DNA from: Candidatus Loosdrechtia aerotolerans
GTDB lineage: Bacteria; Planctomycetota; Brocadiia; Brocadiales; Brocadiaceae
Direction of reading: 5' to 3'
NCBI GenBank assembly: GCA_021646405.1
Contig: SOER01000016.1
Coordinates: 1 to 63,286, forward strand
Length of the DNA stretch: 63,286 nucleotides
Made by a program: the position numbers and the translations under genes. Positions 3,536 through 63,286 of this stretch are shown here, piece by piece (the first letter of the stretch is position 1; each line of letters begins with the position of its first letter). Under the pieces are notes generated by a model. The model did not search any database and was not told where the DNA came from. It saw only the letters and a program-made list of their open reading frames with translations.

Positions 3536-3894
3536 TCTTCAACCTTCTGTCTTCTTTAGTTCATACCTGATACCTTTTTGGTACCTTTTCCGTAACGCTC
3601 ACGATCAGATTTTTTGACTCAAGCCGCTTACGGTAGTTTGCAACCTGCACCTGCAAACCGATTGCGAGGGGCCCTCATCTCCTACGCCGCTTTCTGCGGC
3701 ATACTTATATCCGCACACCATCATGGTTCGGATACTCTATCTTCAAATTTCTCAGTAAGTACGATATTTCTTATGTTCTTCTTTCCTATTACTCAGCCTC
3801 CTCTTTGGATAAATCACATAGGTACCTGACCACAAATTTTTGTACATTTGTATTGCCGGGGAGTTTCAATATGCAAATATTTATGTACAGGTAC
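3536..3894. other. Gene-poor stretch upstream of the sigma-54 activator
   Basis: I see no convincing gene here. Short open frames on the plus strand (starting near 3614 and 3840) have no recognisable family and overlap decayed transposase sequence. The activator start near 3535 has no strong Shine-Dalgarno sequence. Confidence 0.4.
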
Positions 3895-49135: not shown

Positions 49136-50281
49136 TTATTCAATAACCACCTTGCCCTTTTCCAGCTTTAATCCATACTGCTTGCTGCCGTAAGATCCGG
49201 CAGATGCTATGGTATAGATAGGGGTAAGATTTTTGTCACAGATGCCGTCTGCTATTTTTCTTCTCACCTTACTGATAGTCTGCCGCAATATTTTTGACGG
49301 GACTCCCCCCCGCTCTCTGTACTTTTCATACAACTCCTTGCCCTTCAAAGAGTTCTTGCCAAATATCTTTTCATACCATGCGACCAGGGCATTCAATGCG
49401 TCCCTTCCCATCAAACACCTTATTGAGATATAACAATCAACGCATTCGAGGCAGTATTTTCTGTCCGGATACTGGCAGTGATTCAGCTTTTGATCAATGA
49501 GTATCAGGTAAAGGGATAGTTCCATCGGTGTAAATTCAATAGTCTTGTCACCAATCTCAAGCACCCTGTCACACAGATTCACCTTCAGAGATTCCTGCAC
49601 CAGCGCAGTGTCTATTCCTTCCTGCCCCTGACGGACAAGTTCCCGGAAGCTATTGCTGCCCAGAAGCAATTTTTCCTTCAGACGGATAAACGGCAGTTCT
49701 GCCAACTGAACACCAGCCATGTCTGTTGTCATTTTTTTCACGGTCCCGTCAGGCATCCTGCACGGTATCAATTCCGGTTCTTTTGGAGGATAGAAAAATT
49801 CCGGATTACCTTCAAATTCAGGCCTTACCAGGACGTGATACAGCTTATCCCACGGCCTGCCAAAGAGTTGCAGGGCACCGCCAAGATAGAATCCCATAGT
49901 CTTACGCCCTCCGGCGATAGAACAGTGAAGCCGTGTCGTTGCGTCTCCTGCCTTTTCTCTGATAAATCCTGTTATGATATCTCCGGCTGCCTCATTCTCT
50001 TCGTTGTCTCTTATATCTTGCAACGGAGCACCGTCGCGGCCTTTTATTACTATAAGACAATCCTCATCAAAGCGTATCTGAGGGAGCTTGTATTCCTCAA
50101 TAAGTTGTGTAAGAATATTTCGTCTGATGAGGGTATCGGCAATCAGTTGTTTGCCGTAAGAAGTAGTTATGATGTAGAGTTCCCTGATAAATACAGGAGG
50201 GATGTTTCTGGATAGTGCATAAATTGTTTCAGTAACAATCTGTGGGGTGGCACCTGCTACGCAAATAAGAATGTCTTTCAT
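49136..50281 (-). CDS. CRISPR-associated CARF-HTH protein, NE0113 family
   Basis: This 381-aa protein has a CARF domain (about 1-190) that begins ILICVAGATPQIVTETIYAL and has the ligand loop SIAGGRKTMGFYLGG, the hallmark of the NE0113 CRISPR-associated family. A winged-helix-like C-terminal part (about 215-381; FTPMELSLYLIL, TISKVRRKIADG) surrounds a cysteine cluster (CLECVDC, later IRC). It is probably a regulator that responds to cyclic oligoadenylate from a type III effector. It lies at the left edge of the CRISPR island, with no partner gene in an operon. Confidence 0.8.
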   Translation of the reverse strand: MKDILICVAGATPQIVTETIYALSRNIPPVFIRELYIITTSYGKQLIADTLIRRNILTQLIEEYKLPQIRFDEDCLIVIKGRDGAPLQDIRDNEENEAAGDIITGFIREKAGDATTRLHCSIAGGRKTMGFYLGGALQLFGRPWDKLYHVLVRPEFEGNPEFFYPPKEPELIPCRMPDGTVKKMTTDMAGVQLAELPFIRLKEKLLLGSNSFRELVRQGQEGIDTALVQESLKVNLCDRVLEIGDKTIEFTPMELSLYLILIDQKLNHCQYPDRKYCLECVDCYISIRCLMGRDALNALVAWYEKIFGKNSLKGKELYEKYRERGGVPSKILRQTISKVRRKIADGICDKNLTPIYTIASAGSYGSKQYGLKLEKGKVVIE

Positions 50282-51068: not shown

Positions 51069-51152
51069 ATACAGGTCTTCTTTCCTATACATTCCCCTCC
51101 TGGGAGGGGTTAGGGGTGGGTAAAATACGTGTCGCAATCCCTTCTAATACAG
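51069..51152. CRISPR. Fossil CRISPR unit left of array 1
   Basis: A 3' half repeat of the array-2 type (51069-51088), a 42-base spacer-like segment and a 5' partial repeat (51131-51152, starting GTCGCAATCC) form one relic unit. The spacer core CATTCCCCTCCTGGGAGGGG recurs in a second relic near 60.7 kb. Confidence 0.7.
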
Positions 51153-51205
51153 CCGACATTCGAGAGGTTTCCTGTTAAGTTCGCAAATTTCTTGTAAAGG
51201 CGGAA

Positions 51206-51458
51206 AGCTCCGGAGGAGCGGCATATTAATAGAATGAGAATTTACCCACATGGTAAGCTCCAGAGGAGCGACATGTTGGTAACCCTCAGTTCAAGGTTCA
51301 GGGTTCATGGTTAAAAGCGTTAGGAAAAGGACTGTTTGGAGGTTATAAAGACTCGGGACGATTAGCATCGATTATTTCCGTGCCTTCTATGCCGCTCCTC
51401 TGGAGCTCAAGAGTGGTACCTATTGTTTTTCTATTAATATATCGCTCCTAACGGAGCT
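51206..51458. repeat. Four palindromic GCTCC-GGAGC modules
   Basis: Modules AGCTCCGGAGGAGCG (51206) and AGCTCCAGAGGAGCG (51256) face two inverted copies, CGCTCCTCTGGAGCT (51393) and CGCTCCTAACGGAGCT (51443). Flanks such as ATATTAATAGAA are shared by the first and last copies. They are REP-like dispersed repeats in a gene-free stretch. Confidence 0.65.
51286..51352 (+). repeat. Partial third copy of the flanking repeat
   Basis: This segment (GGTTAAAAGCGTTAGGAAAA then GGACTGTTTGGAGGTTAT) is a diverged direct copy of the start of the right flanking repeat at 60.86 kb and an inverted copy of the end of the left one. Confidence 0.6.
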
Positions 51459-51510
51459 TTCTACGTTTTTCAAAAAACGAAATTATTACAATATTCTTTC
51501 ATTTACCGGC

Positions 51511-51533
51511 GAAAACCTCTTGAATATCAGATA
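51511..51533 (+). repeat. Dispersed repeat copy 4, joined to array 1
   Basis: The motif AAAACCTCTTGAATATCAGA, then TAC, is a diverged copy of the repeat at 107-132. It replaces the 5' half of the leader-distal CRISPR repeat, with the junction in shared ATAC bases. Confidence 0.6.
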
Positions 51534-54010
51534 CAGGTCTTTTTTCCTATGCATGAAATAACTTTTATTGTACATACAAAAGAAGTCGCAATCCCTTCTA
51601 ATACAGGTCTTTTTTCCTATTCTTGTGAAGAGTATCATGTTGTATCAATATTGTCGCAATCCCTTCTAATACAGGTCTTTTTTCCTATCAAGTGATTAGC
51701 TATATATTAGAGTGCAATCGGGTCGCAATCCCTTCTAATACAGGTCTTTTTTCCTATGAAATCGAAATCTGGGAAGAAATCCAAATCTGGGTCGCAATCC
51801 CTTCTAATACAGGTCTTTTTTCCTATCAGCGTCAAAAATACGGGTTTCCTGTAATAATATGTCGCAATCCCTTCTAATACAGGTCTTTTTTCCTATTACT
51901 CGCCCAGACAACTGGGAGTACCGGTTAGGTCGCAATCCCTTCTAATACAGGTCTTTTTTCCTATCCGGAATACCAGACAGCATGGAAAGAAGCGTAGTCG
52001 CAATCCCTTCTAATACAGGTCTTTTTTCCTATCTCCATAACATGTCCCCCGCGTGAATGGCTATGTGTCGCAATCCCTTCTAATACAGGTCTTTTTTCCT
52101 ATAGGTGTATCTGGTGGGTTTAAGGCTCTTTCTGGCGTCGCAATCCCTTCTAATACAGGTCTTTTTTCCTATTCTGGGAAGAAATCGAAATAGTTTTATT
52201 TTGCCAGTCGCAATCCCTTCTAATACAGGTCTTTTTTCCTATGCAGAAGCACTTGCAAGATGCCTCTTGAAAGGAGGTCGCAATCCCTTCTAATACAGGT
52301 CTTTTTTCCTATAAATAATAAGGAGCACATTATAAATGCGAATGCACGTCGCAATCCCTTCTAATACAGGTCTTTTTTCCTATAATTACTGAAAAGCCAA
52401 ATTGAACTGGCGTGTTCGGGTCGCAATCCCTTCTAATACAGGTCTTTTTTCCTATGTTTTTATTTGGTAAGTTTGTGGGGGAAAACAAGTCGCAATCCCT
52501 TCTAATACAGGTCTTTTTTCCTATACAATGCATTCATAAAGAATGTTATTATCCATGGTCGCAATCCCTTCTAATACAGGTCTTTTTTCCTATGAGATTG
52601 TGGAAGAGGGTTAGAACCACGGAACACACGTCGCAATCCCTTCTAATACAGGTCTTTTTTCCTATGCAGTTAAAAAAGATTACCTTTGTGACACGAGTGC
52701 GGTCGCAATCCCTTCTAATACAGGTCTTTTTTCCTATCCTGGAAGGACTACCAGATGACTTGGAAGTCGGAAGGTCGCAATCCCTTCTAATACAGGTCTT
52801 TTTTCCTATTAGAATTTATTAATGAATTGTGCAAAACCTTAAGTCGCAATCCCTTCTAATACAGGTCTTTTTTCCTATACCAGCCCAGACAATTGGGTGT
52901 ATCGGTTAGATGAAGGTCGCAATCCCTTCTAATACAGGTCTTTTTTCCTATATACAAATTGAAGTAATATCGATTTCCGGTTCAAGTCGCAATCCCTTCT
53001 AATACAGGTCTTTTTTCCTATAGTATGGGAAATGGAAACTAATCACTATAATTGTCGCAATCCCTTCTAATACAGGTCTTTTTTCCTATGAAAGCAATTA
53101 TTACAACTACGTATGTTTTATTCCTGTCGCAATCCCTTCTAATACAGGTCTTTTTTCCTATGATGGAAGGAGTTCTGAACGAAGAAAATCTTCCAAGTCG
53201 CAATCCCTTCTAATACAGGTCTTTTTTCCTATTGAAGGAAGAAGTAATTATTGTTGACGGTTGGCGTCGCAATCCCTTCTAATACAGGTCTTTTTTCCTA
53301 TGAGATGGAAAATTTCGTTTCGATTCTGCAGGAAGCGTCGCAATCCCTTCTAATACAGGTCTTTTTTCCTATGAATAAATGAAAGAAGAAGTAGTTTTTG
53401 TTAGCGGTGTCGCAATCCCTTCTAATACAGGTCTTTTTTCCTATTAGAAAGGAGATAGAATGTTAGTATTCATAGACTTAGTCGCAATCCCTTCTAATAC
53501 AGGTCTTTTTTCCTATTGCAGACCTCAACCAGGAAGAGCGGGAATTTCTAGTCGCAATCCCTTCTAATACAGGTCTTTTTTCCTATTCGAGTATTGCGAG
53601 CAGCCATGAAATCCAAAAAGGAGTCGCAATCCCTTCTAATACAGGTCTTTTTTCCTATGGATATATCACAGGTTTATATGTATTAGTAAAACACGTCGCA
53701 ATCCCTTCTAATACAGGTCTTTTTTCCTATGACCTGAGACAGCTATGTGTTCAGATTGTTGCTGTCGCAATCCCTTCTAATACAGGTCTTTTTTCCTATG
53801 AATATGTAAACGAAAACAAAATAGAATATTCATAGTCGCAATCCCTTCTAATACAGGTCTTTTTTCCTATGGGCCGATAGCTCTGGAGGTGTGCAGACCT
53901 TCGGAGTCGCAATCCCTTCTAATACAGGTCTTTTTTCCTATTTTGATTTTTATTTTATCATCTTAATTCAGAAAGTCGCAATCCCTTCTAATACAGGTCT
54001 TTTTTCCTAT
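51531..54010 (-). CRISPR. CRISPR array 1: 35 full 36-bp repeats plus one partial
   Basis: The repeat begins GTCGCAATCC and ends CTTTTTTCCTAT on the plus strand; 35 intact copies run from 51585 to 54010 and a 3' half copy lies at 51531-51550. Spacers are 32-37 bases and repeat starts are 68-73 bases apart. On the minus strand the repeat ends ATTGCGAC, like the ATTGAAAC 5' handle of mature type I/III crRNAs, so I infer minus-strand transcription. The degenerate copy then lies at the leader-distal end, and the cas operon lies upstream on the same strand. Many spacers read as sense coding sequence on the plus strand; see findings. Confidence 0.97.
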
Positions 54011-54113
54011 AGCACCCCCTTCCCTTTCTCACGTATTATCAAGTACTTACAAAACCGGTTTTTCATTATATCAGATGTTTTAAAAGTTAGCATGGAAATA
54101 TTTCTGAAATATT
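54011..54113 (-). promoter_or_regulatory. Predicted leader of CRISPR array 1
   Basis: This AT-rich gap lies between the array's first transcribed repeat and the stop of cas2b. A tandem palindrome GAAATATTTC (54095-54104 and 54106-54115) lies about 85 bases from the array and runs into the end of cas2b. A related tandem palindrome lies at 59859-59879. The promoter itself is not obvious. Confidence 0.55.
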
Positions 54114-54389
54114 TCATAGGAATATCTCCACCCCTTCCGGAATCCTGTCTCCCTGACCAAGCACTACACATCGAATATTGGATGGCAGCGGGTATATCCG
54201 TATATCGTCTTTGTTGCTGTCAATTATACCTTTAAGTTCCTCTTTCAATCCTGTTAACTCCTGCCAGGTAAGTTTACAAAAGAATACCGAATACTGTATA
54301 TGCGTTCCGATACCCTTCAGCGTTTTAAATACCCGCCTTAGTCTTTTTGCATCGGTAATGTCATAACAAACGATATAATTACTCTTCAC
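54114..54389 (-). CDS. cas2: Cas2 endoribonuclease-fold protein, second copy (cas2b)
   Basis: This 91-aa protein has the Cas2 ferredoxin fold with the conserved aspartate in YIVCYDITDAKRLRRVFK and the strand IYPLPSNIRCVVLG. Cas2 bridges Cas1 dimers during spacer integration. It follows cas1b by 3 bases and is the last gene before array 1. It differs clearly from the other Cas2 encoded 2 kb upstream. Confidence 0.9.
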   Translation of the reverse strand: MKSNYIVCYDITDAKRLRRVFKTLKGIGTHIQYSVFFCKLTWQELTGLKEELKGIIDSNKDDIRIYPLPSNIRCVVLGQGDRIPEGVEIFL

Positions 54390-54392
54390 TGT

Positions 54393-55229
54393 CTATAGAT
54401 ACTGATTGAATTCCCCACCGAGTCTCAGTTCTCTGATAAGTTCAAACATACCGTCAATAATATGTTCTGTTAAGTTTACGACAGCATCCTTTCTGTTTTC
54501 AAACCGCACTGCTATTGCCTTTACATCTTCTGACGACATCTCTTTGTTTTTACGATGTTCAGCGCCTTTTTTTCCCTGGAAGAATTGAATTGACTGAATG
54601 TCTATCTCAGGACCGAGTACATGGCAAACATCCAGGGCAAGGCCAAAATCTCGCCTCCTGTGCATCACCCCCATGTGGGGGTCGAATTCCGACGCTATGA
54701 GTTTGCTTACAACCATTTCCAGAAAGACTGCGGAAATGGCATTACGAATATAGTGAAACCGTTTGCGATACGGTGCCGTGACGTTATCCATTACCCGCTG
54801 ATACTCTTCTTCTTTGAGGCCTACCGTAACATAGCTGTCGGGTATCTGCCTTTTTAAAAGCCTTTTCAGGACGGTGATCTGAACCCTCTGACGATATGCT
54901 CTCAAAAAGGTCATAAACCGCTTACTGTTATAATCTGACTCAAGGAATATCCTTTGTGTTTTATACTGTCCTGGCAGGTGGTGTTTGTACGGTAGTGTTA
55001 CCGCTATCTGGCTGCCTTTCCTGTCGAAGAATGTTATGGGAATATTGTTTTGGGTAAAGAGGGTTATCAGGCTGGTATCCAGTTTGATATTCCCTACAAT
55101 TACCACCCGCTGAATCATCCTCGCAGGCACACGCCTGCCTGACTTCTCCCCTTCCTTCACCACGATGGAAGGTCCGTCTCTTATTACGCTGAGTGTTGTG
55201 TTTTCATTCAGATAAAGTGTCTTTTCCAT
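54393..55229 (-). CDS. cas1: Divergent Cas1 homologue (cas1b)
   Basis: This 278-aa protein has a clear Cas1 N-terminal beta domain (MIQRVVIVGNIKLDTSLITL) and a helical domain with FDPHMGVMH, keeping the metal-binding His190. Asp200 in LALD is kept, but the next acidic position of canonical Cas1 is His203 (DVCH instead of DLIE). The usual EGxA motif is not recognisable; Glu140-142 are the only candidates. It is about 40 aa shorter than its neighbour. Its start overlaps the end of cas1a by 26 bases. It may be a structural partner in a mixed integrase or a diverged second enzyme. Confidence 0.88.
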   Translation of the reverse strand: MEKTLYLNENTTLSVIRDGPSIVVKEGEKSGRRVPARMIQRVVIVGNIKLDTSLITLFTQNNIPITFFDRKGSQIAVTLPYKHHLPGQYKTQRIFLESDYNSKRFMTFLRAYRQRVQITVLKRLLKRQIPDSYVTVGLKEEEYQRVMDNVTAPYRKRFHYIRNAISAVFLEMVVSKLIASEFDPHMGVMHRRRDFGLALDVCHVLGPEIDIQSIQFFQGKKGAEHRKNKEMSSEDVKAIAVRFENRKDAVVNLTEHIIDGMFELIRELRLGGEFNQYL

Positions 55230-56166
55230 CCATGACCCTCACTGAAATATCCCTTGCCCTCCTGGCAATATCTTTTCTAATCGTTCCGGCCCATTCCTCA
55301 TAAACGGAATAAAACTTCTTCCTGGCATTTTTCTTTAAATAAACCCCTTCTTTCTCCTGCACAAAATCTTCTGAGGTACATTTTCCGTCTTTAAACATCT
55401 CCCATACAAACCGGTCTGTCATCGGCCGAAATAGCTCAATCAGGTCGCAGGCAAGGGAGTCCCGTCCGTAATCAAAACAATGATAAAAACCAATCGTAGG
55501 GTCAAGCCCCGCAACCTGTATCTCCCTTACCGCCTCATAATGAACCAGCGTATAGCAAAGTGAGAGCATTGCATTTACCGGGTCTTTCGGAGGTCTCCTG
55601 GTGCGGGTGTTAAAATCCAGGGATTCAGGGAATAGTCTGGTAAACGCAGAAAAATATGCATTCGAAGCAGCGCCTTCATATCCCCTCAGACTCTCAAGGG
55701 TATCACATTTTGAAGCGATGCTGTCAGCAATATTCTCAAGAGTGCAGAAAACACTGTAAAAAGTTTCCTTCGGGTTTACCTCTCCATTGTTTTTTATTGC
55801 CTCTCCGAGAAATTCACTTTGATGCCCGATCTTCCCGAGGACAATTTCCTTTGATATTGCTATGGCAAAGTCCCTGTTGAGAGATTTTTCATATTGTTTG
55901 ACCCTCAGAATGCTGTTGTTATGGAGACGTCCGGTAAGGATACCCCGGTACTGGAGTCCTCTGCCTGACAGGAATATAACGCTGCTTCCGTTATCTGCAA
56001 GTTTGTTGAGTACGCTTGTTTCTACAGTATTATTCCCAACAATTATCACTCTGTTAAGCGGACGTACGGGAACAATGCCTTCCCTTTTTCCGTCCAGGTA
56101 AAAGGCAATTGATTCACCGTCAAGCTTTATGTGATAACCCTTTCTGTCAATATATAATGTACCCAT
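55204..56166 (-). CDS. cas1: Canonical Cas1 integrase (cas1a)
   Basis: This 320-aa protein shows all Cas1 active-site positions: Glu164 in GYEGAASNAYF, His229 in LDPTIGFYH, and Asp241/Glu244 in ACDLIELFRP. The NFxTRxRRPPKDPVNA-type segment is also present. It should integrate spacers with Cas2. It lies 8 bases after cas2a and overlaps cas1b, so the order is cas2a-cas1a-cas1b-cas2b. Confidence 0.95.
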   Translation of the reverse strand: MGTLYIDRKGYHIKLDGESIAFYLDGKREGIVPVRPLNRVIIVGNNTVETSVLNKLADNGSSVIFLSGRGLQYRGILTGRLHNNSILRVKQYEKSLNRDFAIAISKEIVLGKIGHQSEFLGEAIKNNGEVNPKETFYSVFCTLENIADSIASKCDTLESLRGYEGAASNAYFSAFTRLFPESLDFNTRTRRPPKDPVNAMLSLCYTLVHYEAVREIQVAGLDPTIGFYHCFDYGRDSLACDLIELFRPMTDRFVWEMFKDGKCTSEDFVQEKEGVYLKKNARKKFYSVYEEWAGTIRKDIARRARDISVRVMDGKDTLSE

Positions 56167-56174
56167 GGTATCCT

Positions 56175-56456
56175 TTATCCGAAATAAAAAAACTCAGGAT
56201 CTTTTGGGGGTAATGCGGTACCCATGGTATGAGACCTGCTTCTGCCGTCAAGGGGGAAGATATGAATCCGGTCAGTGCTCTCATCAATAATATGTGATAC
56301 ACCGGTGATAACCTCCCTCAGTTCTCCTTGTGTAAGGAAACATTCAAAGACGGACTTCTGACCGCCCGTGCTGAATCCCTTCAAAAAATACCGCAGCCGG
56401 TTAAGGCGTTTTGGTGTACAAATATCGTATGCCACAATATAAAGATCTCTTTGCAT
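56175..56456 (-). CDS. cas2: Cas2, first copy (cas2a)
   Basis: This 93-aa protein has the Cas2 fold with the conserved aspartate in YIVAYDICTPKRLNRLRYFL, the KSVFECFLT strand and IHIFPLDGRS. It is the first gene of the adaptation module and lies immediately upstream of the canonical cas1. Confidence 0.92.
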   Translation of the reverse strand: MQRDLYIVAYDICTPKRLNRLRYFLKGFSTGGQKSVFECFLTQGELREVITGVSHIIDESTDRIHIFPLDGRSRSHTMGTALPPKDPEFFYFG

Positions 56457-56592: not shown

Positions 56593-57585
56593 TCATGCTT
56601 TAATAAAATACTTTCCCAGTCCGAAACTTGTTCCCTTTCCGACGTGAAGTATTTCCCCTGCCTTAATGAATGGATAAAAGGGTGAAACGATACCTTTGTA
56701 TACGATATCTCCCACAAATCCGCCGAGCTTCATCCTTGTATCCTGTCTGCGGGAATACCGTTCCCAATCGCGCCACTGAAGGTTCGATACCTTTATACCT
56801 GTTGTACGTGCCTCATCTATAAGTATGCGGTGATATCCCTCATTGAACAATCCGCTGTCTTCAGAATTATCTTTACAATAGTAGTGCCTGAGTAGAAATA
56901 ATCGTCTCAAAAGCTGTCTGATAAAGATATGAAATTCCAGGTCAATAATAAGTTTACCGCTGTACTTAAGACGGGTAGGTGTGAGAAATCTCACGGTAAT
57001 TTCTTCGGCAGTGTTCTGTACTGTGTCTGGGATCCTTCCCTCCACCGCTGAAAGGATACTTTGGTTTAAATCTATACACTCATCGCCAAAGGGTTTAACC
57101 TTACGGGTTTTAGAACAGTAGATTAATTTAGAATCATCCTCTGCATCAACCGTATATACCTCCCGGAGCTGGCAACTGCCTCTTCCTCTGCCAATGCCAT
57201 TTTTTCCCAGCAGGTCAAAGGTGTAAATAAAATAGGGCAGGTATTGTATTGCATCGCCAATGAGAACCAGGCCAAGAGAGAACGTTTGTCCCGTAAGATA
57301 CCTTTGTTTCTCTTCTTCAGGTGGTTCTATGACAAACGGATGAGGAATGGAATTTACCCTGCCAAGTATATTAGCCTCATCCGGAGAGTGGGATTCAAAG
57401 ATGTATGCATAGGCGCATCTTTGTTTAAGCAGGCAGTCACGGCAGTCTGTCTTCTTCAGGGTACAGGCAACTTTTTTGAACTGAACGCCAAACGCCCCTC
57501 TGAAGGTAGAGCCTTTATAGGAAGGAAGGTGTATTTCCTCTTCTGCTTCCATAATAAAGGTAAAGCGTTTGTAGGGTATTTTCAT
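56593..57585 (-). CDS. cas6: Cas6 crRNA-processing endoribonuclease
   Basis: This 330-aa protein resembles the PF10040 Cas6 group. The C-terminal part has WRDWERYSRRQDTRMKLGG and HVGKGTSFGLGKYFIKA, with the glycine-rich loop of RAMP proteins, and the N-terminal part has SYKGSTFRGAFG. A cysteine cluster (CRDCLLKQRC) may bind zinc. It should cut the array transcript to leave an 8-nt ATTGCGAC tag. It lies between the CARF-HEPN gene and cas2a. Confidence 0.88.
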   Translation of the reverse strand: MKIPYKRFTFIMEAEEEIHLPSYKGSTFRGAFGVQFKKVACTLKKTDCRDCLLKQRCAYAYIFESHSPDEANILGRVNSIPHPFVIEPPEEEKQRYLTGQTFSLGLVLIGDAIQYLPYFIYTFDLLGKNGIGRGRGSCQLREVYTVDAEDDSKLIYCSKTRKVKPFGDECIDLNQSILSAVEGRIPDTVQNTAEEITVRFLTPTRLKYSGKLIIDLEFHIFIRQLLRRLFLLRHYYCKDNSEDSGLFNEGYHRILIDEARTTGIKVSNLQWRDWERYSRRQDTRMKLGGFVGDIVYKGIVSPFYPFIKAGEILHVGKGTSFGLGKYFIKA

Positions 57586-57668: not shown

Positions 57669-58901
57669 TTAAATGTTTAACCTGGGAAATACAATTACCT
57701 CATCTTCACTGAATATATTAAGACCCAGGATGAACTCCCTGAATTTCTTATAGGTATTGTCACTTGCGCATGCAAATCCGTGAACAAGATAAGAATTATT
57801 TCTCTGTGATTGAATCTGGCGAAAATGTGACAGACGTTTTTGAAATTCCTTACCCAAATCATCCTCCAGCGCTTCGAGTAATTCAAATGCGGCATTTTGT
57901 GATACCTTTATTTTCCCGTCTCTCCTGTCTTTGTATTTCCTGATAAATTCATCACTCACCTGTTGTGGTATTTTCTCTTCAATCACACTACCCGTGTCTA
58001 TCCCATGGTTATTCAGTAACCTTTCCTGGGCAAGCATTTCAACCAGTCTGTAAAGTCGTACAACAGCGTCATCTATCTTCCCTTCCTCAAAACGCCTTTC
58101 AGCATTTGAGAATATATCCAGGGCGAATAACCTGTCGGGTTTCCGTTGCGTCCCGGAAAGAAACTCGAGTTGGGGTTTTAACTGAAGGGTAGCCCTGGCA
58201 AATAACCGTATCCTTTCGTCATCCGTTTCCAGAAGTTCTTCTATCCTTGCCCTTTCAAACTTGCCTACAGCCTCGCCGTGCCTGAAAATATCCCAGCTAT
58301 AATATCCGTCAATAATAAAACCCAGTTTTTTAAAAATACTCTTGTGACTGGTGTTTTTTTCTAATATATCATCGACAAGTGCCTTTGCCGCCTTGAACTG
58401 ATAGGTATTGAACAGGAATGATATCTTCTTCCGTTCATCTATGGCAAGGAAGTCCCACGGGTTGACGCTTTCGTAGACCTCTTCTTTACCGTCAACTACG
58501 GTTCCGACACCGCCCTTTGTCCTCTCTGTACCTCCTACGTAAGAAAAGTTGAATCCATGGGCAACGGCGGAAAGGGAGAGGGCAACAGACATATTCTTTG
58601 TCCCTCCGGTATAATCCACAATAACCTCATCGCTCCGAAAACCTTTCGACAGCACCCTTTTTACCGCCTCTTCTGCCTTACTAAAACAGTGGTACAGGTC
58701 GTTGACCTCGTCGGACAGGGTTATTTCGCTCTTTATGGTATATTTTGCCTCCTGTATCTGTATCCCCTTTTTAATCTCCGTCACGTGGTCGCAGGTATCC
58801 TGGGAGGCGAAGAAGGACACGAATTCCGGCCGGTATTTGGTAATGGATTTTATAATCGGCGCCGGCGTTCCGCCCACAGAGATTATCATTGCCCTGATCA
58901 T
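57669..58901 (-). CDS. CARF-HEPN ribonuclease, TIGR02710/Csm6-like
   Basis: This 410-aa protein has an N-terminal CARF domain (MIISVGGTPAPIIKSI; ligand loop DYTGGTKNMSVALS near 96-109) and a C-terminal HEPN-like domain with the catalytic pattern Arg-x6-His in RNNSYLVHG (about 367-374). Such proteins are activated by cyclic oligoadenylate made by Cas10 and degrade RNA. It is the first gene of the minus-strand cas operon. No cas10 lies in the window. Confidence 0.85.
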   Translation of the reverse strand: MIRAMIISVGGTPAPIIKSITKYRPEFVSFFASQDTCDHVTEIKKGIQIQEAKYTIKSEITLSDEVNDLYHCFSKAEEAVKRVLSKGFRSDEVIVDYTGGTKNMSVALSLSAVAHGFNFSYVGGTERTKGGVGTVVDGKEEVYESVNPWDFLAIDERKKISFLFNTYQFKAAKALVDDILEKNTSHKSIFKKLGFIIDGYYSWDIFRHGEAVGKFERARIEELLETDDERIRLFARATLQLKPQLEFLSGTQRKPDRLFALDIFSNAERRFEEGKIDDAVVRLYRLVEMLAQERLLNNHGIDTGSVIEEKIPQQVSDEFIRKYKDRRDGKIKVSQNAAFELLEALEDDLGKEFQKRLSHFRQIQSQRNNSYLVHGFACASDNTYKKFREFILGLNIFSEDEVIVFPRLNI

Positions 58902-60027: not shown

Positions 60028-60165
60028 TTACAAACCTGAACCCTCTGATATAATGATCTTATCTACAGAGTCTTCTGTGTTTGAAGGCTGTGTAATAACA
60101 ACCTTGTACACTTCTTTCGACAGCATCTTCCTTACTATCTCTTTATCATCTGAGAAAAAACTCAC
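60028..60165 (-). CDS. Small coupled ORF downstream of the repeat protein
   Basis: This 45-aa frame begins with a GTG that overlaps the preceding stop (GTGA), and AGGAGG lies about ten bases upstream. It reads VSFFSDDKEIVRKML to IIISEGSGL. I recognise no family. Coupling and the ribosome site argue for translation, but the length argues for caution. Confidence 0.4.
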   Translation of the reverse strand: MSFFSDDKEIVRKMLSKEVYKVVITQPSNTEDSVDKIIISEGSGL

Positions 60166-60608
60166 TCCCCTTTTCCCTCCTTATCCTTCTTCTCCTCCGA
60201 AGATGATGAAGAGAACGGTCTCACAAAACCCGCCCTACTCCACCTGTTATTAAACCTCTCAAACACCTCGTCATCATCTCTTCTTTCAATGAACTCTTCC
60301 CTCTCCCGTTCTTCGTCAAATACCTCAAATCTGTCCTTTCCTCTCCTCTCTACAAACCCTCTCCTATTCCACCTCTTATCGAATAACTCTATCCTCCCAT
60401 CCCTTCTCTTCTCTGCAAACCCCGTCCTGTTCCAATCCTTATCAAACAACTCCAACCTTCCACTCCTCTCATCCTCCCTCACAAACCCTGTCCTATTCCA
60501 CCTCTCGTCAAACACCTCATACTCTCGTCCCACGACGGAGGAGGTTGTTGACCAGGTGGAGAGGAGTATGCAACATGGGAATAACAACAGTAATAAAGGT
60601 CTTTTCAT
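60162..60608 (-). CDS. Exported tandem-repeat protein of unknown function
   Basis: This 148-aa protein has a hydrophobic N-terminal segment (LLLLLFPCCILL) as a signal peptide or anchor, then five ~21-residue repeats with the pattern (E/L)-FD-x-x-WNR-x-GF-x-E-x-R. The first three are nearly identical; the fourth has lost the WNR core. The C-terminus is a serine and charge-rich tail. The pattern resembles small beta-blade repeats that build beta-propeller or beta-flower folds, but I do not recognise a family. It lies in the CRISPR island between vapBC and array 2. Confidence 0.6.
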   Translation of the reverse strand: MKRPLLLLLFPCCILLSTWSTTSSVVGREYEVFDERWNRTGFVREDERSGRLELFDKDWNRTGFAEKRRDGRIELFDKRWNRRGFVERRGKDRFEVFDEEREREEFIERRDDDEVFERFNNRWSRAGFVRPFSSSSSEEKKDKEGKGE

Positions 60609-60710: not shown

Positions 60711-60815
60711 ATCGTAATCCCCTCCAATACAGGTCTTCTTCCCATACATTCCCCTCCTGGGAGGGGTCAGGGGTGGGTGAGTCACAATCCCTTCTAATAC
60801 AGGTCTTCTTTCATA
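60711..60815. CRISPR. Fossil CRISPR unit left of array 2
   Basis: Two degenerate repeats (60711-60745 and 60781-60815), several bases off the array-2 repeat, enclose a 35-base spacer whose core CATTCCCCTCCTGGGAGGGG also occurs in the relic near 51.1 kb. It is a leader-distal remnant or a duplicated piece. Confidence 0.7.
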
Positions 60816-60854
60816 CTTGAGGGAACCAGGAACGGGGCCGATCCCATATGCATT

Positions 60855-61202: not shown

Positions 61203-61414
61203 CACATGAAAATTCCTATACATTCAAGCTCAGGAACAATGCTGTACTTTTTCTGATCCTCACACAAAGTCACCAAAACACCAGGATATATGGTATGTCC
61301 CCATTCTTGCCATTCTATCCTTCATCATTCTTTATTCTTTTTATTCTTAGTGCCTCCGTGTCTTTGTGTGATGAAGATACCTTAGCTTGATGAATATGGG
61401 GCCAGTCCCCGTCG

Positions 61415-63136
61415 TCGCAATCCCTTCTAATACAGGTCTTCTTTCCTATTAGAATATCTTTCAGGCACTCCCCAAGAAAGGTCGCAATCCCTTCTAATAC
61501 AGGTCTTCTTTCCTATATCGTAATTTATTACATTTTTAACATTGTTATTAGGTCGCAATCCCTTCTAATACAGGTCTTCTTTCCTATGGGGCATATCATG
61601 TCTGATGCACCCCCTGGAGGTTTACCGTCGCAATCCCTTCTAATACAGGTCTTCTTTCCTATGTATGAATGAGGCAATCCGTGCCGGTAAGAACCGTCGC
61701 AATCCCTTCTAATACAGGTCTTCTTTCCTATACCATCACGAGAAGATAACGCAACAACAGAACGTCGCAATCCCTTCTAATACAGGTCTTCTTTCCTATG
61801 GAAAAAAACTGTTGAGGTTGAGGAAAAATCAATGTCGCAATCCCTTCTAATACAGGTCTTCTTTCCTATAAGAAATAAAGACTTGTCAGTGGCTGAATTC
61901 ATTGTCGCAATCCCTTCTAATACAGGTCTTCTTTCCTATATAAAAAATTAAACAAAGAAGGAAAGGCAGAAGGGTCGCAATCCCTTCTAATACAGGTCTT
62001 CTTTCCTATAACAGAGAGAAGCTGGATGAATATGGCTTGGAAGCGTCGCAATCCCTTCTAATACAGGTCTTCTTTCCTATGCCTTGATGAGTGGAAAGGG
62101 TTGGAATCTTCCCAGGTCGCAATCCCTTCTAATACAGGTCTTCTTTCCTATCTTCTGTCTCATAGACAGGTGTTATGTTACCTGTCGTCGCAATCCCTTC
62201 TAATACAGGTCTTCTTTCCTATTCTAGAACAAGGAAGTATGGCATCACAAGTAGTCGCAATCCCTTCTAATACAGGTCTTCTTTCCTATGATTCATTAGA
62301 CGCATTAATTCCAAGAGTTGCTTTGTCGCAATCCCTTCTAATACAGGTCTTCTTTCCTATGGGATGGAGGGGATCCTGACGCATGACGAATTGCCGTCGC
62401 AATCCCTTCTAATACAGGTCTTCTTTCCTATGAAAAGGAGCAAGTTAAAACGCTTCTTAACCTCGTCGTCGCAATCCCTTCTAATACAGGTCTTCTTTCC
62501 TATTCGAAACACTGCCGGATGAAGAGGAAATACGAAGTCGCAATCCCTTCTAATACAGGTCTTCTTTCCTATGCGGCCTCATTGAGCCTATAAGGATTCT
62601 AAAAGCATGTCGCAATCCCTTCTAATACAGGTCTTCTTTCCTATGCCAGAAAGCAATAAGATTATCTGGATTCTGCTGTCGCAATCCCTTCTAATACAGG
62701 TCTTCTTTCCTATAGATAGGAAATGGACAAAAAAAATGCTTTCTGGCGTCGCAATCCCTTCTAATACAGGTCTTCTTTCCTATCATACTAACTCTGGCTT
62801 AAGATTCTTGTATTATAGTCGCAATCCCTTCTAATACAGGTCTTCTTTCCTATCTAGAAATGGGATCAATGGCATCTCAAGTAATCTCGTCGCAATCCCT
62901 TCTAATACAGGTCTTCTTTCCTATCATACTAACTCTGGCTTAAGATTCTTGTATTATAGTCGCAATCCCTTCTAATACAGGTCTTCTTTCCTATGTTGCG
63001 CCAGTGACAGATTATTTTCTGCCACTGGCGTCGCAATCCCTTCTAATACAGGTCTTCTTTCCTATTTAGAAGATTTAGAAAATTTCTTCGATGGTACGAT
63101 GTCGCAATCCCTTCTAATACAGGTCTTCTTTCCTAT
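61415..63136 (-). CRISPR. CRISPR array 2: 25 repeats of 36 bp
   Basis: The repeat is that of array 1 except position 28 (C instead of T, giving CTTCTTTCC). There are 24 spacers of about 30-39 bases. Direction is inferred as minus from the ATTGCGAC end. All repeats to the right end look intact. Two spacers (62784-62817 and 62925-62958) are identical. The expected leader side is cut by a transposase gene 30 bases after the last repeat. Confidence 0.97.
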
Positions 63137-63166
63137 AATAATGAAGGAAATAAACATATTTAGGAC

Positions 63167-63286
63167 TTACGCATTTGCTAATAAATAATGAGTAACAGCA
63201 GACCTGGTAAGAGAAGCTTTTTGCTCATACCAGGGAATTCGTTCTTTGATTCTTCTTGTTTCCAATTTTACAAAGGCAAGAAAAGA
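63167..63286 (-). CDS. C-terminus of a transposase (partial, runs off the window)
   Basis: The 39 visible residues include SFLAFVKLETRRIKERIPWY and end LTRSAVTHYLLANA. This fits the C-terminal end of IS701/IS4-like transposases, where a WYE-like segment precedes the last helix. The stop is followed by TTAGGACTTACGCA on the plus strand, probably the element's terminal repeat. It lies on the leader side of array 2 and is transcribed toward the array. Confidence 0.55.
   Translation of the reverse strand, partial: SFLAFVKLETRRIKERIPWYEQKASLTRSAVTHYLLANA

What the first reader, a model, noticed from the sequence alone, without database searches (positions are those of the whole stretch)
62223..62888. 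Spacer pair from diverged versions of one gene: LExGSMASQV
Spacers at 62223-62253 and 62854-62888 encode LEQGSMASQV and LEMGSMASQVI in the same reading frame with boundaries one base apart. AGT/TCA and TCA/TCT are synonymous changes. The same conserved gene seems to have been sampled twice from different viruses.
Basis: seen in the sequence. Interest (0 to 1): 0.7.

Follow-up and report, generated by a model that had tools for sequence, protein, structure and literature searches.

The report
Diverged twin spacers in CRISPR array
A bacterial immune memory array in an anammox-type bacterium holds two slightly different copies of the same short piece of an unknown viral gene, most likely stored from two related viruses, and this kind of repeat sampling turns out to be usual in CRISPR arrays of the RNA-targeting type.

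Summary
Two spacers of a CRISPR array (62223-62253, 62854-62888) match at 23 of 30 bases and read LEQGSMASQV / LEMGSMASQV in one frame; random substitutions conserve the peptide this well with P = 0.0006. It is not the only case: three more diverged pairs lie in the sister array at 51585-54010, all in the same orientation. Nearly all spacers look coding-sense on the + strand, so crRNAs read from the - strand would be antisense to mRNA, as type III systems need. The host is a Candidatus Jettenia-like anammox bacterium. No protospacer was found in viral, phage, plasmid or relatives' genomes, so "different viruses" and the gene's identity stay inferred. Controls show that the redundancy is general: related pairs make up 0.25% of spacer pairs here, 0.29% in 27 arrays beside the same unusual adaptation cassette, 0.29% in 13 single-Cas1 type III-A arrays, and 0.03% in 14 arrays of mostly other types. 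So it is ordinary type III behaviour. Noticed beside it: a widespread cas2-cas1-cas1'-cas2' cassette whose second Cas1 lacks a conserved active-site acid; a second, diverged Cas1 is already catalogued.

The parts
62223..62253 (+). spacer 1 of the pair, 31 nt, encodes LEQGSMASQV (mRNA-sense on +); older if the leader lies to the right
62854..62888 (+). spacer 2 of the pair, 35 nt, encodes LEMGSMASQVI; nearer the inferred leader end
61414..63136 (-). CRISPR array B: 25 repeats GTCGCAATCCCTTCTAATACAGGTCTTCTTTCCTAT (+ strand letters), 24 spacers; inferred transcription leftward
   Evidence: orientation from the leader of array A, the degenerate repeats at the left ends and the repeat end ATTGCGAC
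51585..54010 (-). CRISPR array A: 35 repeats (TTTTTT variant), 34 spacers, with three further diverged pairs
54011..54113 (-). leader of array A, conserved with the Candidatus Jettenia ecosi locus; GGGGTGC directly before the first repeat
51897..51928 (+). spacer TRPDNWEYRL, partner of 52879-52915 (26 of 31 bases)
52879..52915 (+). spacer TSPDNWVYRLDE, partner of 51897-51928
53233..53265 (+). spacer KEEVIIVDGW, partner of 53373-53408 (24 of 29 bases)
53373..53408 (+). spacer MKEEVVFVSG, partner of 53233-53265
51758..51790 (+). spacer EIEIWEEIQIW, overlaps 52173-52206 with a 10-nt offset
52173..52206 (+). spacer WEEIEIVLFC, partner of 51758-51790
62784..62817 (+). spacer identical to 62925-62958; the two copies flank the LEMGSMASQV spacer
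62925..62958 (+). second copy of the spacer at 62784-62817
54114..54389 (-). cas2b
   Evidence: TIGR01573 6.5e-13
54393..55229 (-). cas1', diverged second Cas1, 278 aa
55204..56166 (-). cas1, 320 aa, with the conserved E, H, D, E motif residues
   Evidence: TIGR00287 3.6e-65
56175..56456 (-). cas2a
   Evidence: TIGR01573 1.7e-10
56593..57585 (-). cas6
   Evidence: TIGR01877 4.8e-07, below its cut-off; PADLOC Cas6 7.6e-105
57669..58901 (-). CARF-HEPN (Csx1/Csm6-like) type III accessory
   Evidence: TIGR02710 1.5e-54; PADLOC 6.3e-130
49136..50281 (-). CARF protein, Csm6-named ring nuclease family
   Evidence: TIGR02584 4.4e-69

Best explanation
The two sequences are independently acquired spacers of a CRISPR array of the RNA-targeting (type III) kind in a Candidatus Jettenia-like anammox bacterium. 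Each derives from the same position of one conserved protein gene in diverged members of one virus (or other mobile element) lineage. Steps shown: the array, the shared coding frame, further pairs of the same kind, and a spacer set that reads coding-sense on the + strand. Steps inferred: the array is transcribed leftward, so crRNAs are antisense to viral mRNA; only spacers that can bind mRNA are kept by selection, which narrows the usable target space; when a relative that mismatches the old spacer at 7 of 30 positions comes along, a fresh spacer from the same region is kept. Repeated sampling of homologous sites is then expected. The same frequency of related pairs occurs in type III arrays with ordinary Cas1, so neither a special feature of this gene nor of this adaptation cassette is needed.
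For: Pair and frame. Three further same-strand pairs scoring 16 or more, none on opposite strands. Strand: 46 of 57 distinct spacers score better as coding on +, with the test right for 76% of true sense host fragments; the gain on + over composition-preserving shuffles is about 6 SD. Spacers of relatives with the same repeat: 33 of 46. Orientation: conserved leader and GGGGTGC at the right end of array A. Generality: related pairs 4 of 1596 here, 29 of 10088 in 27 arrays with the same cassette, 7 of 2383 in 13 single-Cas1 type III-A arrays, 5 of 15101 in 14 control arrays. Literature: type III spacers favour the coding strand, 65% on average and 88% in Moraxella III-B (PMC8482600, passages); in Thermus phage-derived spacers show strong strand and region bias caused by selection (PMC7515739, abstract and passages).
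Against: No protospacer was found, so the source is unproven. The window locus itself has no Cas10 effector; the genome carries only two diverged Cas10 genes on other contigs, so which effector uses these crRNAs is unknown. No pair links array A with array B (0 of 782, about 3.8 expected at the within-array rate, P = 0.02), so the two arrays may record different lineages or times.
Confidence: 0.82

Rival explanations
1. Both spacers come from two paralogous genes or internal repeats within one virus genome rather than from two viruses.
For: The pair at 51758/52173 overlaps with an offset and has a repetitive sequence (EIEIWEEIQIW / WEEIEIVLFC), which fits an internal protein repeat. No protospacers are available to exclude it.
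Against: Three of the four pairs align over nearly their whole length with no repetitive character; paralogy at several independent sites is less likely than relatedness of source genomes. Inference.
Confidence: 0.12
2. The similarity is chance, or one spacer is a mutated copy of the other made inside the array.
For: The exact duplicate at 62784/62925 shows that identical copies do occur in this array.
Against: Chance: mean 0.017 pairs per simulated set against four observed. Mutation in place: seven changes in 30 bases, two of the three changed codons synonymous, different right boundaries, while all 25 repeats stay identical and the nearby duplicate spacer has no change.
Confidence: 0.02
3. 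Repeated sampling reflects an acquisition hotspot (start-codon regions, hairpins, accessible or structured nucleic acid) rather than later selection for working spacers.
For: Across 27 arrays with this cassette, Shine-Dalgarno plus ATG motifs occur in 48 of 500 spacers in sense and 9 of 500 in antisense (uniform sense sampling gives 3.1-4.6%), and spacers that fold well (z below -2) make up 15.8% against 5.8% in controls. A review reports start-codon and hairpin preferences for type III-A adaptation in Streptococcus thermophilus (PMC9048733, passages).
Against: Single-Cas1 type III arrays behave alike (11 against 0 of 219; 23 of 219 folding well), natural arrays are always filtered by selection, and neither spacer of the pair carries the start-site motif. 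The two causes cannot be separated from sequence.
Confidence: 0.2

Closest known systems
Type III CRISPR arrays with coding-strand-biased spacers (PMC8482600; PMC7515739)
   Same: Repeat-spacer structure, antisense orientation relative to mRNA, type III accessory CARF proteins nearby
   Different: The window locus lacks Cas10; spacers match no known virus; the bias here appears close to complete (46 of 57 with a 76%-accurate test)
Type III-A loci of Nitrospirota and Desulfobacterota with the repeat end GGGATTGCGAC (loci L194-L226, L229-L268)
   Same: Same repeat style, same redundancy rate, same strand bias
   Different: Five of the six Cas10 genes checked there are canonical Csm1; the window genome has none
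PADLOC PDLC01185 'Cas1, diverged variant, second in the loci'
   Same: The second Cas1 of the window cassette hits it (2.3e-06); 7 of 10 family members hit it
   Different: Other Cas1 profiles score higher; no functional description was found in the searches

Membership tests
CRISPR array | regular direct repeats with unique spacers of similar length | tested here: met
   25 and 35 repeats of 36 nt, spacers 31-39 nt
CRISPR array | leader next to cas1/cas2 | tested here: met
   array A only, leader conserved with J. ecosi; array B has no matching leader before the contig ends
Type III CRISPR-Cas system | Cas10 effector in the same locus | tested here: not met
   Csm1-family search of the whole genome hits only contigs C5 and C44, both under the Csm1 cut-off, nothing in the window contig
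Type III CRISPR-Cas system | CARF accessory proteins | tested here: met
   TIGR02710 and TIGR02584
Type III CRISPR-Cas system | crRNA antisense to mRNA | tested here: inconclusive
   spacer coding-strand bias and inferred array direction agree, but no transcript data and no protospacers
Type III-A subtype | csm1 to csm5 genes | tested here: not met
   no Csm1 over cut-off in the genome; the J. ecosi sister locus has Csm4 and Csm5; csm2-csm5 were not searched on their own
Spacers from homologous genes of two viruses | two protospacers in homologous genes of distinct viruses | tested here: inconclusive
   five viral scans and blastn against phages (both arrays) and plasmids (array B) gave none
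PDLC01185 second diverged Cas1 | match to the profile and position next to a normal Cas1 | tested here: met
   2.3e-06 in PADLOC, behind stronger general Cas1 profiles; adjacent to cas1

The most novel reading that the evidence does not exclude
Natural type III arrays draw on a small set of transcript sites (coding-sense, start-codon regions, hairpins), so homologous sites of diverged viruses are sampled again and again, roughly eight to nine times more often than in the control arrays. Diverged spacer pairs would then serve as a protein-level fingerprint of viruses never sequenced, and the paired active and degenerate Cas1 with two Cas2 proteins could be one asymmetric integrase that sets spacer orientation (the last part is not supported by the single-Cas1 control).
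Probability: 0.2. Interest if true: 0.55.

Novelty: new member of a known kind. Interest (0 to 1): 0.33.

Why it matters
Diverged twin spacers show that a host met related invaders more than once, and they reveal the reading frame and conserved residues of a viral gene whose virus is unknown. That redundancy is about eight to nine times commoner in type III arrays than in the control arrays tested here gives a simple, testable measure of how narrow type III targeting is in nature.

Tried and rejected
Target search. Degenerate back-translations of LExGSMASQV, PDNWxYRLD and MKEEVxxVxG had no exact match in viral contigs; a six-peptide composite gave 3 unconfirmed stretches; the relaxed GSMASQV pattern gave 17 contigs, none with LE in front and none with another spacer match above 69%. 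Blastn of both arrays against phages gave only weak hits, E 2 or worse; array B against plasmids gave one hit at E 0.5; array A was not run against plasmids. LExGSMASQV with one mismatch: in 147 relatives (own genome included) only the two spacers themselves. PDNWxYRLD with one mismatch: in 59 relatives (own included) only the two spacers and one match in an implausible 110-residue frame of G041.

Idea rejected: that the paired-Cas1 cassette causes the strand bias and the redundancy. Single-Cas1 type III-A arrays show the same sense bias (149 of 219 against 318 of 500, Fisher P = 0.27) and pair rate (7 of 2383 against 29 of 10088, P = 1.0); only start-site frequency is slightly higher with the cassette (48 of 500 against 11 of 219, P = 0.04).

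Idea rejected: that Cas1' lacks the whole active site. The first Glu cannot be aligned with confidence; only the loss of the Glu that follows the conserved Asp (E244 of the active Cas1) is clear in 10 of 10, and the His is kept in 5 of 10.

Idea not pursued: RNA-virus targets. A small sampled space (about 7.5 kb, interval 2.9-28 kb) and one coding strand would fit, but so would part of a DNA phage; no RNA virus collection was available.

Rows dropped before counts: the second copy of the duplicate spacer (57 of 58 used in most tests; searches used all 58), 2 of 29 detected arrays (L202 and a 20-nt repeat in L215) were not scored, L264 was left out for its short repeat. Of 66 genomes with csm1, 40 loci were fetched and 13 arrays scored; 3 of these 13 loci (L249, L263, L267) show no cas1 of either kind in the fetched flank. 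Of 33 plus 8 genomes with cas1' hits, 4 were not fetched (G415, G233, G211, G663). L207 gives 15 of the 29 pairs; without it the rate is 14 of 5038 (own arithmetic). Of the 14 control arrays one (L076) has a Cas10 nearby and gave one of the five pairs. The six parts of the composite query were chosen by eye.

Full report
What is there. The finding lies in a CRISPR array at 61414-63136: 25 identical 36-nt repeats and 24 spacers. A sister array with a one-base repeat variant lies at 51585-54010 (35 repeats, 34 spacers); no other array with this repeat is in the 3.26 Mb genome, apart from one degenerate repeat copy at 60781. Between them, on the - strand, are cas6, cas2, cas1, a diverged second cas1 (cas1'), a second cas2 and a CARF protein, with a further CARF protein at 49136. 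The closest cas1 genes are those of Candidatus Jettenia ecosi (79%) and Candidatus Kuenenia hertensis (72%), so the host is an anammox-type bacterium.

The pair. Spacers 62223-62253 and 62854-62888 align without gaps at 23 of 30 bases; their left ends differ by one base and their right ends by five. In one frame they read LEQGSMASQV and LEMGSMASQV. Seven random substitutions would leave so few amino-acid changes with P = 0.00055, and only in that frame.

Not alone. Of 1596 pairs among 57 distinct spacers, four score 16 or more, all on the same strand: the reported pair and three in array A (51897/52879, T[RS]PDNW[EV]YRL; 53233/53373, KEEV[IV][IF]V[DS]G; 51758/52173, an offset overlap). Opposite-strand scores reach only 12. 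Unrelated host coding fragments gave a mean of 0.017 such pairs per set, 300 sets. For the second and third pair the frame test alone is not significant (P 0.15 and 0.58 for random positions); they rest on the DNA match. In addition one spacer occurs twice without change, at 62784 and 62925, on both sides of the LEMGSMASQV spacer.

Orientation. With a codon model from 31 host genes, 47 of 58 spacers (46 of 57 distinct) score better as coding on the + strand; true sense fragments of host genes score so in 76%. The + strand score exceeds composition-preserving shuffles by 95 units (SD 15), close to the 124 (SD 18) seen for true sense fragments, while the - strand gains only 35. A plain count of stop-free frames shows no difference between the strands (101 on +, 106 on -). 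Forty-six spacers of relatives with the same repeat give 33. Fourteen control arrays, taken because their loci came up with the cas1 query, mostly show no bias (lowest two-sided P 0.03). The leader of array A is at its right end and conserved with J. ecosi, and GGGGTGC precedes the first repeat there and in related loci. So the arrays should be read leftward, and crRNAs would be antisense to mRNA. That step is inferred; no transcript data exist here.

Is it special? Searching genomes for cas1' gave 33 of 295 in the phylum of L014 and 8 of 297 in the phylum of L019. In all 42 loci examined (L011-L019, L194-L226; most chosen because they carry cas1') a normal cas1 and one or two cas2 lie nearby, in the order cas2a-cas1-cas1'-cas2b; L221 lacks a cas2a match and in L224 and L225 cas1' lies some kilobases away. 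Twenty-seven arrays at 26 of these loci (500 spacers) give sense-better 318 of 500, start-site motifs 48 sense against 9 antisense, and 29 related pairs in 10088. Fourteen control arrays give 13 against 14 of 636 and 5 pairs in 15101. The decisive control is type III-A arrays from genomes without a cas1' hit: 13 arrays, 219 spacers, give 149 sense, 11 against 0 start-site motifs, and 7 related pairs in 2383. So strand bias and redundancy belong to type III arrays in general, and the reported pair is one case at the usual rate. These arrays are not independent samples, the orientation of arrays was taken from repeat ends, and pair counts include some nearly identical spacers shifted by a few bases.

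How it most likely works. Type III effectors need a crRNA that is antisense to a transcript. In Thermus, spacers kept after phage infection showed strong strand and region bias caused by selection, while unselected acquisition used both strands (PMC7515739, abstract and passages). Large-scale mapping found 65% coding-strand spacers for type III (PMC8482600, abstract and passages). In Marinomonas, RT-Cas1 oriented spacers only marginally (PMC5576922, abstract and passages). With few usable sites and recurrent attack by relatives, homologous sites are stored repeatedly. From the within-array pair rate the sampled strand space is about 7.5 kb (interval 2.9-28 kb; assumes uniform sampling and full detection); array A and array B share no pair (0 of 782, P = 0.02).

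What could not be shown. No target was found (see Tried and rejected). For Candidatus Kuenenia, a study found no outside match for 210 spacers of a type I-B locus (PMC7709395, passages), so unsequenced anammox viruses are a plausible reason. The effector is also open: the window has no Cas10; contig C44 carries a type III-D-like module and, some kilobases on, a reverse transcriptase next to cas1, cas2 and cas6, and contig C5 a diverged Cas10.

The second Cas1. An AlphaFold2 model of cas1' (mean pLDDT 82.7) matches Cas1 structures best (Thermotoga TM1797, E 6e-10), and profile comparison with the active Cas1 gives 98.7% probability. The Glu of the DLxE motif, invariant in the active partner, is absent in 10 of 10 aligned cas1' proteins, and the motif His is kept in 5 of 10. 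That these are metal-ligand residues is recalled, not tested. A PADLOC profile named 'Cas1, diverged variant, second in the loci' matches 7 of 10 members, so the existence of such a protein is already known; searches listed no paper on its function, seen as search listings only. In a recent classification (PMC12669027, passages) the phrases 'two copies' and 'inactivated cas1' do not occur.

Verdict. A correct and well-seen observation with a mostly correct interpretation; the phenomenon is a normal feature of type III spacer memory.

Noticed in passing
54114-56456: Four-gene cassette cas2a-cas1-cas1'-cas2b in which the second Cas1 lacks the Glu of the DLxE motif (checked in 10 proteins); the cassette is present in the 42 loci examined from several phyla (chosen mostly by cas1'; L221 without a cas2a match). 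A paired active and degenerate Cas1 suggests a heteromeric integrase.
   Followed up: partly
51758-53408: Three more diverged spacer pairs in array A, same strand; one of them (53373) includes a likely start codon.
   Followed up: yes
62784-62958: One spacer is present twice without change, on both sides of the LEMGSMASQV spacer.
   Followed up: no
63137-63286: Right end of array B has no leader like that of array A; the contig ends 150 bases later. The array is probably cut off from its leader.
   Followed up: partly
51100-51560 and 60711-60816: Degenerate or partial repeat copies at the left (leader-distal) ends of both arrays.
   Followed up: no
L085:3034-6589 (contig C44 of the same genome), L084: A group II-intron-like reverse transcriptase next to cas1, cas2 and cas6, about 13 kb from a type III-D-like effector module (Cas10, Csx10, other RAMP proteins).
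   Followed up: partly
L207:8693-16162: 103-repeat array in which 15 spacer pairs are related, several of them hairpins with diverged stems (GAGGGTTTCGATACCCTC type), as if a structured RNA of related elements had been sampled repeatedly.
   Followed up: no
27 arrays: Start-codon regions with a Shine-Dalgarno motif are over-represented in sense orientation (48 against 9 of 500), and well-folding spacers are more frequent than in control arrays.
   Followed up: partly
60162-60608 (-): Open frame of 148 aa made of repeats of the type ELFDKDWNRTGFA, next to array B; function unknown.
   Followed up: no
3565-3676 (-): Rfam match to a group II intron (RF01999, 83 bits).
   Followed up: no
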